Source: Gammaproteobacteria bacterium
Lineage (GTDB): Bacteria; Pseudomonadota; Gammaproteobacteria; SZUA-140
NCBI GenBank assembly: GCA_015491865.1
Contig: WFVD01000018.1
Coordinates: 1 to 64,000, forward strand
Length of the DNA: 64,000 bases
Reading direction: 5' to 3'
Below, in pieces: positions 2 to 5,861 of this stretch. The notes beneath the pieces were generated by a model. It made no database searches. It saw nothing but the letters and a program-made list of their open reading frames with translations, and had not been told where the DNA came from. A program made the translations under genes and the position numbers. Every line of letters begins with the position of its first letter. The first letter of the stretch is position 1.

Positions 2-385
2 ATTCGCCAGTGGCTGGATAAAACGCTGCACCACACACTGCCCAAGGGACTGCTGGGCAAAGCCTTGTCATACCTGGCAAAGAACTGGAAAAAGCTCACG
101 ATTTACACAGAAGACGGTCGACTATCTATCGATAACAATCCCGCAGAGCATGCGATACGCCCCTTCGTTATTGGCCGTAAGAACTGGTTATTCAGTGCCA
201 GCGTCAGAGGTGCGAAATCCAGCGCCAACCTGTATGGTCTGATCGAGACAGCCAAAGCCAATGGGCTTGAGCCTTATGCTTATCTTCGGCATGTTTTTAA
301 AGCACTCCCTCAAGCGGCTAGTGTTGAGGAGATCGAAGCGCTTCTGCCCTGGAACGTGCGCCTGGAATCAGCTGCCATTAAATGA
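2..385 (+). pseudogene. IS66-family transposase, C-terminal part (5' end outside window)
   Basis: The reading frame is open from the window edge to a TGA at 383-385, so only the C-terminal part (about 127 residues) is visible. It matches the end of the IS66 TnpC catalytic domain: the segment DNNPAEHAIRPFVIGRKNW contains the last conserved acidic catalytic region, followed by GLIETAKANG and the family's closing LLPWN motif. Whether the upstream part is intact cannot be seen. The sequence GTTTATCGATCGTTTAC ending at 418 could be the right inverted repeat, since IS66 ends resemble CGCTTAC, but without the left end this is a guess. The element lies tail-to-tail with ppc. Confidence 0.85.
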
Positions 386-539: not shown

Positions 540-3341
540 TTACCCTGTGTTACGCATTCCTGCAGCAATTGCGTTGATTGAGCGCAGTAGTGGATCAAGC
601 CATTTCTGGCGCTCCTCTTCGCTAAGTGATTCATCACGAAAACGCTGCAATAACATCACCTGAATGTAGTTGAGAGGGTTCAGGTAAGGGTCACGGCGGC
701 TAAGTGATAGCGCCAACCTTGGGTTATCTGCCAGTAGTTCTGGCGCTCCTGAGGCGTTAAGAATAGATTCAACAGTGCGATCATATTCATCGCAGACCAT
801 GGTCGAGACCTGGCGTGCCAGGCCTTTGTTTTTACATAAGGTGGCATACTCTTTGAGTATCGCCGTGTCTGCTTTCACTAGCGCCATTTGAGTGTTGCTC
901 ATCAGTGCGCGGAAGAATGGCCAGTTCTTATACATCTCTTTCAGCTGTTCATGCTTCTGAGCATCATCGTTACTCCACTGTTTGAGTGCAGAGCCGATGC
1001 CGTACCAAGCAGGCAGGGTGTGACGTGACTGCGCCCAGCCAAACACCCATGCAATCGCACGCACTGAGGATTTTGAACGATCCCCTTTTTTACGATGACT
1101 TGGGCGTGAGCCGATGTTCATCATGCCGATCTCAGTGACGGGAGTTGCCTCATAGAAGTAATCAAGGAAGCCGGGGGTATCATCAACCAGTTTACGATAG
1201 GCCTCTTCGCCATCTTCAGCAATCTGCTCCATCGCCGTTTCATAACGCTCGGGGACCGGAGCGGGCTCTTTGACGATATTTTTGCTCGCCTTGATCAGGC
1301 CGGTAACACCCATCGTTAATTCAGCGACAGCGGTCTCTTTATTACTATATTTATAGGTGATCATCTCACCCTGTTCGGTAAACTTGATCTGCCCTGTTAC
1401 GGTTCCCTCTGGTTGTGACAGGATCGCTTCATGGGTCGGGCCGCCACCACGCCCCATGGTGCCACCTCGACCGTGGAAAAGACGGCATTCGATGCCGCAG
1501 CTCGCAGTGAGTGCGATGATCTCCTGCTGGGCCTTATAGAGGCTCCACGCGGAGGAGAGGATACCGCCATCTTTGCAGGAGTCGGAGTAACCCAGCATGA
1601 TCTCCTGCACGTTGCCTGCGCTCTGTAACAGGCTTCGATAGACATCCGTTTTGAGCAGGTTCTTCATCACTTGTTCGATATGGCGCAGATCTTCAATGGT
1701 CTCGAACAGGGGGCTGATCTGGATATTACAGAACCAGTTGCCCTGTTTGTTTTTACCGACAAGCCCTGTTTGTTGAGCAAGGAACATCACTTCCATGATG
1801 TGGCTCGCGGTGTGTGTCATGGAGATCACATAACTGCCAAAGGCCTTGGCGCTGATCTCTTCACGCATTTTTTTCATCACATCGAACACTTCAAGAGTTT
1901 CGCGGGTGGTGTCGCTGAGTGACTTCCGATCAATCGTTAGCTGCTCGTCTTCAAGAAGTTCGCTAAGAAAGCGCATACGTTCCCGCTCGCTGAGTGCGGA
2001 GTAGTCCGGATTGCTGCTCTTCTGGGCCAGTATTTCGGTGACAGCATCGGTATGACGAGTAGACTCCTGGCGTAAATCGAGGCTGACGAGGAAAAACCCA
2101 AAGGTCTCGGCGAGGCGAATTAGATCTTTGAGTGCGCCGTTGGCGACATTGGCATCGCCGTGTGAAATCAGCGAATCACGAATCAGACGCAGGTCATTAA
2201 TAAAGTCTTCATCTGAATGGTAGCCATTCTCTGGCGTGAGCGTTTCTTGGGTATTGTAGAGACGGTCACGTACTGCCCACAGGTTACGTTCAAGACGGTA
2301 GCGCATGATGTGCAGCTTTCTGCGGTAGGGTTCGTCTCTAAAGCGATCAGGGTTGTCTGGAAAGGCGCTGGCAGCGTATCGCTCATCGCTATCGAGGCTC
2401 TTCTGGAAAGCCTCTCCCGGTGGGCAGAGCGATGCTGAATGGGTCAGGATCTTCGCCAGCGCAGAGAGACGGGGCAGGTACTCTTTGAGAATAGCCTTCG
2501 CATGCAGGTTCACCGCTGAAACTGTCGTTTCTGGCGTGACGTTAGGGTTGCCGTCACGATCACCACCGACCCATGAACCAAAGCGGATAAAGCTGGGAAT
2601 GGTAACGGTACTGCTGTTGTTGAGGCCGTAGATTCGCTCACTGGCTTTTTCAAAATCGCGATACATCAACGGTACCGCTTCAAAGAGGCTCTCCTGAAAA
2701 TAGAAGATGCCGTTGCGAATTTCGCTGGTTACTTTGGGGCGTTTGCTGCGAACCTCATTACTCTTCCATAAAACCTGGATCTGGCTCTCCAGTTGACTAA
2801 GGATATCGGCACGCTCTTCACGTGTTGGGCGGCCCTCATCAAGCTGCTGGCTGGTAACGAAGATTCGGCGCAGCGCCTCAAGGATGGTGCGGCGTTTTGA
2901 TTCGGTGGGGTGGGCCGTAATTACCGGGATATAAGCAAGTTTGTCAAAGATACTCTGTAGCTGTCCGGGCGTGATACCTGCATCATGAAAATCCCTTAAC
3001 GCTTCATCAAATGAGCCTGCCCCCTGAAGGCCGCCACGACGTTTCTGCTGGCGGCGCTGCTGGTGCTGATTGGCCTCTTCAGCAATGTTGACCAGGCTAA
3101 AGTAGATGCTGAAGGCGCGCACGACATGGGAGAGGATCTCTGGATCCAGCTTACGCATCATGCGCGCAAGTTGCTCATGCTTTTTAGGGTTGTGCTCTTT
3201 GCTGAGTCGAATATAACCCTTTCTAAGTGCCTCAACGGCAACAAAGACCCGGCCACCCGCCTGTTCGCGCAGGATATTGCCCAGCAAATTGCCAAAGAGT
3301 TTTACGCGTGAACGTAGTGCTTTATCACTATCACTAACCAT
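540..3341 (-). CDS. ppc: Phosphoenolpyruvate carboxylase
   Basis: Cytoplasmic anaplerotic enzyme that makes oxaloacetate from PEP and bicarbonate. At 933 residues it is somewhat longer than the E. coli enzyme (883). Catalytic signatures are present: VITAHPTESKRRT with the catalytic His near residue 150, the glycine-rich loop FHGRGGTMGRGGGP, and NIGSRPSHRKKG, and the C-terminus ends in the usual family tail (MRNTG). It is transcribed leftward toward the IS66 remnant. A GlgA-like gene lies 71 bp upstream on the same strand and may be co-transcribed. The ATG at 3341 is the first in-frame start; no unusual residues were noticed. Confidence 0.97.
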   Translation of the reverse strand: MVSDSDKALRSRVKLFGNLLGNILREQAGGRVFVAVEALRKGYIRLSKEHNPKKHEQLARMMRKLDPEILSHVVRAFSIYFSLVNIAEEANQHQQRRQQKRRGGLQGAGSFDEALRDFHDAGITPGQLQSIFDKLAYIPVITAHPTESKRRTILEALRRIFVTSQQLDEGRPTREERADILSQLESQIQVLWKSNEVRSKRPKVTSEIRNGIFYFQESLFEAVPLMYRDFEKASERIYGLNNSSTVTIPSFIRFGSWVGGDRDGNPNVTPETTVSAVNLHAKAILKEYLPRLSALAKILTHSASLCPPGEAFQKSLDSDERYAASAFPDNPDRFRDEPYRRKLHIMRYRLERNLWAVRDRLYNTQETLTPENGYHSDEDFINDLRLIRDSLISHGDANVANGALKDLIRLAETFGFFLVSLDLRQESTRHTDAVTEILAQKSSNPDYSALSERERMRFLSELLEDEQLTIDRKSLSDTTRETLEVFDVMKKMREEISAKAFGSYVISMTHTASHIMEVMFLAQQTGLVGKNKQGNWFCNIQISPLFETIEDLRHIEQVMKNLLKTDVYRSLLQSAGNVQEIMLGYSDSCKDGGILSSAWSLYKAQQEIIALTASCGIECRLFHGRGGTMGRGGGPTHEAILSQPEGTVTGQIKFTEQGEMITYKYSNKETAVAELTMGVTGLIKASKNIVKEPAPVPERYETAMEQIAEDGEEAYRKLVDDTPGFLDYFYEATPVTEIGMMNIGSRPSHRKKGDRSKSSVRAIAWVFGWAQSRHTLPAWYGIGSALKQWSNDDAQKHEQLKEMYKNWPFFRALMSNTQMALVKADTAILKEYATLCKNKGLARQVSTMVCDEYDRTVESILNASGAPELLADNPRLALSLSRRDPYLNPLNYIQVMLLQRFRDESLSEEERQKWLDPLLRSINAIAAGMRNTG

Positions 3342-3412
3342 GATGTCTCTTAAAATGTTATTAACAGCAGAGCTGCCCCGATAGGCAGTTATGAGTTCAA
3401 ACCGAGCGCGTA

Positions 3413-4879
3413 TTATACCTGAAGATCACTGTTTTCCTGAATTTCTATGGTTTTTTTATATAGATCAATGTATTGCTTAGCAGTTTTGCGCCAGCTAAAG
3501 TCCTGCTGCATGCCGTTAATGGCAATTTTTTTCCACTCTTTGGGCTGTTCCAGGTAAAAGGTGATGGCTCGATTGAGTGTGGTGAATAGCGTGTCAGCAT
3601 CGGTCAGGTCTAGCAGAAAACCGCTGGCGGTGTTGTTGCTGAGGGTGTGGTCGTTGGTGTCAACCACGCTGTCGGCAAGTGCGCTGCTGTTGTTTACCGC
3701 AGGTACCGTACCGTAACGTAGTGCCAGGCGTGGACGAGTAGCACATGGGTCCAGTCGTGATGGTGCAAGGTAGATATCGGCACCGCCGATGATTAGATGG
3801 GAGAGGTGGTTATCTTCACGAATATGGGCGGCGATCTGTTCTGAGTGGTTGAGGCAGATGTCACGCAGCTGAGAGACATACTCAATCTCCCCCTTACCCA
3901 GCAGGATGATCTGCATATCCTGTTTTAAGAGTGCCGGGATCACGGCTAATAACTGCTCTATACCCTCGGTAGTGGCTAGCTCTCCGATGACCCCGACCAG
4001 GCAGCAGTTTTCACGCGGTGGCAGATTAAAGGCGCGCTGCAGCGCCAGCTTGCTAAGAATTTTGTCGCCTATTGTGTGGCTGTTGTAGTTTCTGGGGAGG
4101 CGCTTATCTTTTGCAGGATTCCATTTCTGGTAGTTGAGGCCGTTCAATATACCGCGCAGATTCTTTTCGCGCGCCTTAAGCAGACTCTCAACGCCGCAAC
4201 TAGAACCTGCAGTAGTGATCTCTCTGGCATAGGTGGGGCTGGTGGTGCTGATATTATCAGCATAGCGTAACGCCGCTCTGGTAAAGCAGATCTGGCCCTC
4301 TATCATGATTGATGAATCGTCCATGAGGGTTGCTGGTAGCCCCCAGTTTTTCAGCAGCGTAAGTGCGACACGCGCCTGTTTTTCGGGGTTGTGCAGTGTA
4401 AAAAGAGTGGCGACCCGCTTTTCATGGTGCCTCATTAGAGGTGGTATCAGCCCCGTTTGCCAGCCGTTGCAATGCACCAGTTGGGGCCTCCAATTGAAAT
4501 TGGCCTCTCCTGTGGCGATGGCAACCGCGACCTGACAAAAGCGGGCAAAATGCTCATTATGGCCAGCATTGGCGTTGTCATCGGCTTCGTGACCATTCCC
4601 AGCTGGAATATCTGCCAGCAGTAGTTTCACCGAGCTGCCGGGTAGCTTGCTTTCATAAAGGCTGACCGGGAGGTCGAGGCCTTTGATCTTGAATTCGGCA
4701 CATAATGTTCTCTTGCCAACGCTATTCAGGAGTTCCTGGTAGGCTGGCGCCACCACATAAATATGGCGCCGCAGCGCTTTGATTGCCGGCGGTAGTTGCA
4801 TCGTCATATCGATGATCTGGTTGATCGACTCCTGTGGAGTGATCTCGCAGGTCGCAAAGAGGACATTATGGATATTCAT
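3413..4879 (-). CDS. GlgA-like GT5 fold protein lacking catalytic residues
   Basis: The 488 residues align end to end with bacterial glycogen synthase (GT5). Shared structural motifs include FTLHN, SPTYAREIT, ILNGLNYQKWNP, LRYGTVPAV and DFSWRKTAKQY. Signature catalytic motifs are replaced: the N-terminal KTGGL is SINQI (residues 18-22), HAHDWH is HCNGWQ, SRLTSQKG is GELATTEG (the essential Arg and Lys both become Glu), FEPCGLTQ is LDPCATRP, and RTGGL is NSSAL. The fold is probably kept and the ADP-glucose transferase chemistry lost, so this looks like a pseudoenzyme rather than glgA. The open frame and conserved core argue against simple decay. It is 71 bp upstream of ppc and divergent from the 6PGDH-like gene at 5025. 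No other glycogen gene is in the window. Confidence 0.85.
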   Translation of the reverse strand: MNIHNVLFATCEITPQESINQIIDMTMQLPPAIKALRRHIYVVAPAYQELLNSVGKRTLCAEFKIKGLDLPVSLYESKLPGSSVKLLLADIPAGNGHEADDNANAGHNEHFARFCQVAVAIATGEANFNWRPQLVHCNGWQTGLIPPLMRHHEKRVATLFTLHNPEKQARVALTLLKNWGLPATLMDDSSIMIEGQICFTRAALRYADNISTTSPTYAREITTAGSSCGVESLLKAREKNLRGILNGLNYQKWNPAKDKRLPRNYNSHTIGDKILSKLALQRAFNLPPRENCCLVGVIGELATTEGIEQLLAVIPALLKQDMQIILLGKGEIEYVSQLRDICLNHSEQIAAHIREDNHLSHLIIGGADIYLAPSRLDPCATRPRLALRYGTVPAVNNSSALADSVVDTNDHTLSNNTASGFLLDLTDADTLFTTLNRAITFYLEQPKEWKKIAINGMQQDFSWRKTAKQYIDLYKKTIEIQENSDLQV

Positions 4880-5024
4880 GCGGTATAGTTAGGTCTGTAA
4901 TCGATATGCCGGGTTTAGTTTCTGGCTCTATTGTTAAAAAGTCGTTTCGATGCCAACTTGTTAAAGGTTATCGGTATTTTTTCCTGAGCATTTAGAAAAA
5001 ACATGAATTGAGAAGGAATTATTA

Positions 5025-5861
5025 ATGAGATTTGCTCTGATCGGGCTGAAGGGGATGGCTGGAAACATGGCGCGCAGGTTGCGCCAGCAGAAGATAGAGG
5101 TAATCGGGTGCGACGAGGATAGTGACTATGGCAAGCAGCTGGCTGCCGACATCGGCGTGGTGGCGACTTCATCGCTAGTCGCAGCACTGAGAAAATTACC
5201 GGGGGATTCACCGAAGATTGTCTGGTTGATGCGGCCTGATAATGCAGCCGTTGATCGAGAGATTAAAAACCTGCTCAAACGGCTGTCTTTTGGCGATATC
5301 GTTGTTGATGGCAGCCACGCCAATTATCGTGATAGTCAGCGCCGAGGGGCACTGCTCTCACAGAGCGGTATCGGCTTTGTCGATGCCGGCATTCTGGATA
5401 GCGGCAATGGGGTTGAACGGGGCTTTTGCATAACGGTTGGGGGCGAACGAGAACAGGTGAATACAGTAAAGCCACTGTTACAGGCGTTGGCCGCTGATGG
5501 CGGCAGTGGTTGGTCCCACGTCGGCCCAGTCGGCGCTGGCCATTTTGCGAGGATGGTTCATTGCGGGGTTGAGTGGAGTGTGAGGCAGGCCTTTAATGAA
5601 GGGTTTGCGCTGTTGCAGGGCAAGACAAATTTCTCTTTTGATCTGGAGCAGGTTGCACAAACCTGGTCGAAAGGGGCGATGCTTGATGGCGCCGTGCTTA
5701 GCGATGAGGTTGCGATACTGAGCGCTGAGTCATCGGGATGCGTGCAACTACCCAACTTTGATGAGCTTCGCTGGACCGCTATTGAGGCCATTGATCAAAA
5801 TCTTTCCGTGCCCGCTATTTCTGCTGCACTGCAAAGCGCTGCGGGAGATCGAAGCAGCTAA
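5025..5861 (+). CDS. 6-phosphogluconate dehydrogenase-like protein with degenerate active site
   Basis: A 278-residue relative of the short (GndA/YqeC-type) decarboxylating 6-phosphogluconate dehydrogenases. The frame of the family is clear: MARRL near residue 18, YRDSQRR near 101, VERGFCITVGGE near 130, GPVGAGHFARMVHCGVEW near 167-184. Key residues differ. The Rossmann motif GxGxxG is GLKGMA; the substrate motif GGN is GSH (96-98); the SGG stretch is altered; the catalytic Lys is Arg176 and the neighbouring Asn is Cys180, while the following Glu183 is kept. Normal NADP-dependent decarboxylation is therefore doubtful. A good Shine-Dalgarno (GAAGGA) precedes the ATG, and a terminator follows. 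The gene is divergent from the GlgA-like gene. Confidence 0.82.
   Translation: MRFALIGLKGMAGNMARRLRQQKIEVIGCDEDSDYGKQLAADIGVVATSSLVAALRKLPGDSPKIVWLMRPDNAAVDREIKNLLKRLSFGDIVVDGSHANYRDSQRRGALLSQSGIGFVDAGILDSGNGVERGFCITVGGEREQVNTVKPLLQALAADGGSGWSHVGPVGAGHFARMVHCGVEWSVRQAFNEGFALLQGKTNFSFDLEQVAQTWSKGAMLDGAVLSDEVAILSAESSGCVQLPNFDELRWTAIEAIDQNLSVPAISAALQSAAGDRSS

What the first reader, a model, noticed from the sequence alone, without database searches (positions are those of the whole stretch)
3413..4879. GlgA-fold pseudoenzyme with all main catalytic motifs replaced
Seen: the 488-residue frame aligns with glycogen synthase along its length, but KTGGL becomes SINQI, HDWH becomes NGWQ, SRLTSQKG becomes GELATTEG, EPCGLTQ becomes DPCATRP and RTGGL becomes NSSAL. 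Known: in E. coli GlgA the KTGGL lysine, the Arg/Lys pair of the SRLTSQKG segment and the Glu of EPCGLTQ bind or act on ADP-glucose. Inference: glucosyl transfer is lost while the fold is kept under selection, so it may serve as a regulator, scaffold or sugar sensor.
Basis: partly seen in the sequence, partly recalled or inferred. Interest (0 to 1): 0.7.

Follow-up and report, generated by a model that had tools for sequence, protein, structure and literature searches.

The report
Paired dead GlgA and Gnd paralogs
In one genus of probable hydrothermal-vent bacteria, two adjacent sugar-metabolism genes (glycogen synthase and 6-phosphogluconate dehydrogenase) lost their active-site residues while intact substitutes sit elsewhere in the genome, yet both are still preserved by selection, which suggests they were reused together for a non-enzymatic job.

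Summary
A 488-aa GlgA homologue lies at 3413-4879 on the minus strand. It passes the general GlgA model but has lost nearly all ADP-glucose and acceptor residues. It is not isolated decay: all eight genomes of the genus in which the locus is assembled keep it (68-95% identity), with the same sites lost and dN/dS 0.08-0.27, like the intact GlgA of the same genomes. Lost invariant residues are concentrated in the substrate site (odds ratio 14, p = 2e-5).

(1) The gene occupies the ancestral glgA position (gnd | glgA > ppc), where other genera of the family keep their only, intact glgA; here an intact glgA sits in a separate glgC-glgB-glgA-pgl-zwf cluster. (2) The divergent neighbour, a short-type Gnd (5025-5861), looks dead too: catalytic Lys183 to Arg in all eight genomes, NADP fingerprint and C-terminal tail lost, while a full-length Gnd lies elsewhere. 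Both genes show a long stem branch (1.4-1.6 changes per site), then constrained evolution.

Best reading: a displaced enzyme pair kept as non-catalytic, probably protein-binding, partners. The binding step is inference; the structure models failed.

The parts
3413..4879 (-). glgA-p: degenerate GlgA homologue, 488 aa
4814..4828 (-). SINQI in place of KTGGL (residues 18-22; Lys15 to Ser or Pro)
   Evidence: 7 of 7 copies changed
4463..4465 (-). Gly139 in place of acceptor-binding Asp137
   Evidence: 7 of 7
3962..3985 (-). GELATTEG in place of SRLTSQKG (residues 299-306; Arg300 to Asp/Glu, Lys305 to Glu/Asn)
   Evidence: 7 of 7
3815..3820 (-). Arg354-Glu355 in place of adenine-contacting Gly354-Tyr355
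   Evidence: 7 of 7
3731..3751 (-). DPCATRP in place of EPCGLTQ (residues 377-383; Glu377 to Asp, Pro or Ala)
   Evidence: 7 of 7 changed
3677..3691 (-). NSSAL in place of (R/N)xGGL (residues 397-401)
5025..5861 (+). gnd-p: degenerate short-type 6-phosphogluconate dehydrogenase homologue, 278 aa, divergent from glgA-p
5043..5060 (+). GLKGMA in place of the GLGKMG cofactor fingerprint (residues 7-12)
   Evidence: second and third Gly lost in 8 of 8
5541..5576 (+). HFARMVHCGVEW in place of HFxKMIHNGIEY (residues 173-184; Lys183 to Arg, Asn187 to Cys/Ser, Tyr191 to Trp/Ser)
   Evidence: 8 of 8
4880..5024 (.). 145-base region between the two start codons, with two blocks conserved across the genus
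540..3341 (-). ppc (PEP carboxylase), the ancestral downstream neighbour

Best explanation
The gene is most likely the genus's original, vertically inherited glgA, which stood in an old divergent pair, gnd | glgA, in front of ppc. In the ancestor of this genus a second glgA (in a cluster with glgC, glgB, pgl and zwf) and a full-length Gnd took over the enzymatic work. The two displaced neighbours were not lost. Both went through a burst of change that removed substrate and cofactor residues but kept the conserved core, then settled under purifying selection. They most likely work as non-catalytic, protein-binding partners, with each other and/or with their active counterparts, tuning glycogen synthesis and the oxidative pentose phosphate step. 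Shown: motif loss, conservation, purifying selection, synteny, parallel history of the two genes. Inferred: loss of activity, order of events, protein-protein action and its target.
For: Substrate-site residues lost preferentially while 62 other invariant residues are kept. Present with the same losses in all eight genomes where the locus is assembled. dN/dS 0.08-0.27 for glgA-p and 0.04-0.16 for gnd-p, against 0.08-0.17 for the intact GlgA. All ten other genomes of the family hold an intact glgA divergent from gnd with zwf behind it, eight of them with ppc downstream. Intact glgA in a separate cluster and full-length Gnd in the same genome. Stem branches of 1.42 and 1.57 changes per site with short crowns. 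Conserved shared intergenic region.
Against: No binding or activity data. Structure models failed. The tree does not reject glgA-p and the intact GlgA as sisters (AU p = 0.213), so the displacement order rests mainly on synteny. Co-retention is one event in one genus, so it cannot be counted as repeated association. ppc may have its own promoter, so no operon link to glgA-p is shown.
Confidence: 0.5

Rival explanations
1. Each protein acquired a new catalytic activity: a GT-B protein with a rebuilt cleft and a dehydrogenase-fold protein with a new reaction, perhaps as consecutive steps.
For: 47 residues are invariant in glgA-p and rare in intact GlgA, some of them in the old cleft (Arg354, Glu355, Gly139, Ala380). 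His161 in glgA-p and His186 and Glu190 in gnd-p are kept.
Against: The former catalytic positions are partly variable (position 377 is Asp, Pro or Ala; 305 is Glu or Asn). gnd-p has lost its cofactor fingerprint.
Confidence: 0.2
2. The two are regulators that act alone, each only as a subunit of its own active counterpart (glgA-p with the intact GlgA, gnd-p with the full-length Gnd), and their adjacency is only inherited.
For: The adjacency is ancestral, so it needs no joint function. Precedent: prozyme activates its active paralogue (PMC5201418).
Against: gnd-p is of the short type and its active counterpart is of the distant full-length type (about 30% identity), a poor case for mixed dimers. 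Both genes show the same long stem and later constraint.
Confidence: 0.18
3. Slow decay: both genes are on the way to loss and kept by chance or by the control elements inside them.
For: The start of glgA-p carries extra synonymous constraint, and a conserved TATAAT overlaps its stop codon.
Against: Open frames in all copies and dN/dS like that of the intact GlgA across a genus with synonymous distances above 1.
Confidence: 0.07
4. glgA-p is still a glycosyltransferase with altered donor or acceptor.
For: The general GlgA model is passed; His161 and mostly Asn246 are kept.
Against: Phosphate-binding Arg and Lys became acidic or Asn, adenine-stacking Tyr became Glu, and acceptor Asp137, Tyr95 and Tyr165 are gone (residue roles from PMC6210743).
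Confidence: 0.05

Closest known systems
Bacterial glycogen synthase GlgA (GT5, TIGR02095)
   Same: Homologous along the whole length; 62 of 112 invariant columns kept in all copies; same gene position as the family's intact glgA.
   Different: Donor and acceptor residues lost; a second, intact GlgA is present in the genome.
Plant STARCH SYNTHASE 5 (described as non-enzymatic; PMC10801857)
   Same: A GT5-type protein without enzymatic activity that is kept by selection; acts through protein partners.
   Different: Plant, different lineage; its role is starch granule initiation. No homology beyond GT5 was tested here.
Prozyme, the dead paralogue of trypanosome AdoMet decarboxylase (PMC5201418)
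   Same: Dead paralogue kept beside an active one in the same genome.
   Different: Unrelated fold; binding to the active paralogue is shown there and only proposed here.
MKIP1, a dead plant starch branching enzyme that binds MatK (PMC13172542)
   Same: Glucan enzyme that lost catalysis, stayed under constraint and was reused.
   [quoted passage not shown] unrelated fold.
Short-type 6-phosphogluconate dehydrogenase (NF007161) for the neighbour gnd-p
   Same: gnd-p aligns over residues 1-272 and holds the family's ancestral gnd position.
   Different: Lys183, Asn187, Tyr191, cofactor fingerprint and conserved C-terminal tail lost.

Membership tests
GT5 / GlgA (homology) | Full-length match to the GlgA model | tested here: met
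   TIGR02095, 362 bits, residues 5-476, above cut-off
Functional GlgA | Match to a GlgA equivalog model above its cut-off | tested here: not met
   357 bits at best against a cut-off of 459
Functional GlgA | Lys15, Arg300, Lys305, Glu377 and Asp137 present | tested here: not met
   None kept in any of seven copies; all kept in 51 of 51 intact GlgA
Functional GlgA | Glucosyl transfer from ADP-glucose | not testable with these tools
   Needs purified protein
Pseudoenzyme | Catalytic residues lost and the gene kept by purifying selection in a clade | tested here: met
Pseudoenzyme | Fold retained | tested here: inconclusive
   Core residues kept, but the model has pLDDT 33.7
Pseudoenzyme | No catalytic activity; role through binding | not testable with these tools
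   Needs assays and pull-downs
Functional 6-phosphogluconate dehydrogenase (neighbour) | Lys183, Asn187, GxGxxG fingerprint and C-terminal tail present | tested here: not met
   All lost in eight of eight genomes; residue roles from PMC8900737

The most novel reading that the evidence does not exclude
Two enzymes of different pathways, displaced by substitutes, were converted together into a two-component non-catalytic regulator that links glycogen synthesis to the pentose phosphate pathway; four new invariant cysteines in glgA-p (198, 292, 293, 342) would allow a redox-sensing form of it.
Probability: 0.2. Interest if true: 0.8.

Novelty: new variant of a known kind. Interest (0 to 1): 0.55.

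Why it matters
Dead paralogues are usually described one at a time. Here two neighbouring enzymes of different pathways seem to have lost catalysis in the same ancestor, at their original locus, and to have been kept since. That makes a testable case of paired pseudoenzymes after enzyme displacement, and a bacterial counterpart to the non-enzymatic starch synthase of plants. It also warns annotators: both genes would be named glgA and gnd by homology, and glgA-p passes the general glgA cut-off.

Tried and rejected
Isolated decay: rejected by conservation and dN/dS. Recent duplication of the intact GlgA as the source: disfavoured by synteny and tree, not rejected statistically. Absence in G009 and G007 as evidence of loss: not used, since their assemblies also lack ppc and a close kef homologue, so the whole locus is probably unassembled. 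Wider spread of glgA-p: of 229 genomes sampled in the class only the two members of this genus score above 1000 bits, all others at most 440; one scan of 84,980 species genomes with peptide patterns found three loci, all in genomes of this genus (finds close relatives only). RNA element in the intergenic region: no Rfam match. GlgA-bearing viral contigs for alignment depth: none confirmed. AlphaFold2 models: unusable with four sequences, so no fold search was run. Literature search for a dead bacterial GlgA: nothing found (open-access library only). A paper giving E. coli GlgA mutants was not found; residue roles come from PMC6210743.

Full report
Observation. The frame at 3413-4879 lies on the minus strand and encodes 488 residues. 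It matches the general GlgA model TIGR02095 above its cut-off over residues 5-476, but scores under the cut-off of every GlgA equivalog model. BLASTP to the other GlgA of the same genome gives 37% identity over 478 aligned columns.

Residue by residue. Roles of E. coli GlgA residues are taken from Tables 1 and 2 of PMC6210743. Against 51 intact GlgA sequences, the seven full-length copies of this protein have lost donor residues Lys15, Gly18, Arg300, Lys305, Gly354, Tyr355 and Glu377, and acceptor residues Tyr95, Asp137 and Tyr165, in every copy; His161 and Glu9 are kept in every copy and Asn246 in five. Arg300 is always Asp or Glu; Lys305 is Glu in six and Asn in one. Of 112 columns at least 95% conserved in intact GlgA, 31 are lost in all copies and 62 kept in all; 13 of the 31 but 3 of the 62 are substrate-site columns (odds ratio 14.2, p = 2.2e-5). 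The site was lost while most of the rest of the conserved core stayed. I chose the site columns from the published tables plus eight neighbouring motif residues before counting.

A conserved clade. The order, as held in the collection, is one family of 20 genomes, ten of them in the genus of the window. Eight genomes of the genus carry the gene at 68-95% identity (in G002 it is split over two contigs), with the changed sites. The two without it also lack ppc and a close kef homologue, so their locus is probably unassembled. In 229 genomes of the class, the two members of this genus score above 1000 bits against the clade profile and everything else at most 440. The genome of the window has a RuBisCO large subunit, and one relative probably comes from a Southwest Indian Ridge vent chimney (sample name D96SM, PMC9174799).

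Selection. dN/dS (NG86) of glgA-p is 0.08-0.27 in six genome pairs; that of the intact GlgA is 0.08-0.17. Mean protein identity within the clade (75%) is close to that within the intact clade (76%). This is not decay.

Location. All ten other genomes of the family carry their only GlgA, intact, divergent from gnd with zwf behind it, and eight of the ten have ppc downstream (not G014 and G018); G041, outside the family, has the same order. Divergent gnd | glgA also occurs in at least ten more sampled genomes of other families (G093, G131, G055, G053, G038, G099, G102, G106, G074, G080; compare coordinates). In the genus of the window this position is held by the degenerate pair, while the intact glgA lies in a malQ-GH57-glgC-glgB-glgA-pgl-zwf cluster. 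The tree places glgA-p with the family's own GlgA (84/84) and the intact copy in another part of the tree; a clade of glgA-p plus the intact copy is not rejected (AU p = 0.213). So vertical descent of glgA-p is the favoured, not the proven, reading.

The neighbour. The divergent gene at 5025-5861 is a short-type Gnd homologue (NF007161 225.7 bits, under its cut-off of 271). Residue roles are from PMC8900737. In all eight genomes Lys183, the general base, is Arg; Asn187 is Cys or Ser; Tyr191 is Trp or Ser; the second and third Gly of the cofactor fingerprint are gone; and the conserved C-terminal end is missing. Glu190 and His186 are kept. A canonical full-length Gnd lies at C16 of the same genome; such a copy was found in most genomes of the genus and in none of the four family genomes searched outside it. 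gnd-p groups with the family's gnd (90/94) on a stem of 1.57 changes per site; glgA-p has a stem of 1.42. dN/dS of gnd-p is 0.04-0.16 in the six pairs where it could be computed.

Shared control region. The 145 bases between the two starts hold two blocks conserved across all eight genomes, one running into the first codons of glgA-p, where synonymous codons are unusually conserved (0.83 against 0.54 for the whole gene). A promoter-like match on the plus strand at 4860-4889 fits this, but such matches are no more frequent than in shuffled sequence. A conserved TATAAT overlaps the glgA-p stop codon, so ppc probably has its own promoter; this is inference.

Mechanism. With both substrate pockets broken and both cores conserved, a role through protein contacts is the most likely (inference). 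Precedents: plant SS5, described as non-enzymatic (PMC10801857); MKIP1, a dead branching enzyme that binds MatK (PMC13172542); prozyme, a dead paralogue in functional complex with its active partner (PMC5201418). Which partner is bound here is not known. Four cysteines are invariant in glgA-p and absent at those positions from all 51 intact GlgA (198, 292, 293, 342), which would allow redox control; this is a lead only.

Limits. AlphaFold2 gave pLDDT 33.7 and 46.2 because only four sequences could be used, so nothing is said about structure. All the evidence traces to one conversion in one genus. Function was not measured.

Noticed in passing
window 5025-5861 (+): Neighbouring short-type Gnd is itself degenerate in all eight genomes of the genus; now part of the finding.
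   Followed up: yes
window 4860-4889 (+): Promoter-like AGGACA-N18-TATAGT inside the conserved start of glgA-p, pointing toward gnd-p; the first ten codons of glgA-p have unusually conserved synonymous sites.
   Followed up: partly
window 3412-3417 (-): Conserved TATAAT overlapping the glgA-p stop codon, followed in several genomes by a short G+C-rich inverted repeat before ppc; possibly the ppc promoter and leader.
   Followed up: partly
window 65-385 (+): Open frame that looks like the C-terminal part of an IS66-type transposase; judged by eye only.
   Followed up: no
L044 (G053:C1:1417195-1418645): In another gammaproteobacterium the glgA beside an intact gnd is split over two frames of 315 and 202 codons, a likely broken gene.
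   Followed up: no
L041 (G002:C66) and L042 (G005:C49): A further, divergent short-type gnd beside zwf in the intact glg cluster of two genomes; it keeps the catalytic Lys183 motif.
   Followed up: partly
window 3413-4879 (-), residues 198, 292, 293, 342: Four cysteines invariant in glgA-p and absent at those positions in 51 intact GlgA.
   Followed up: no
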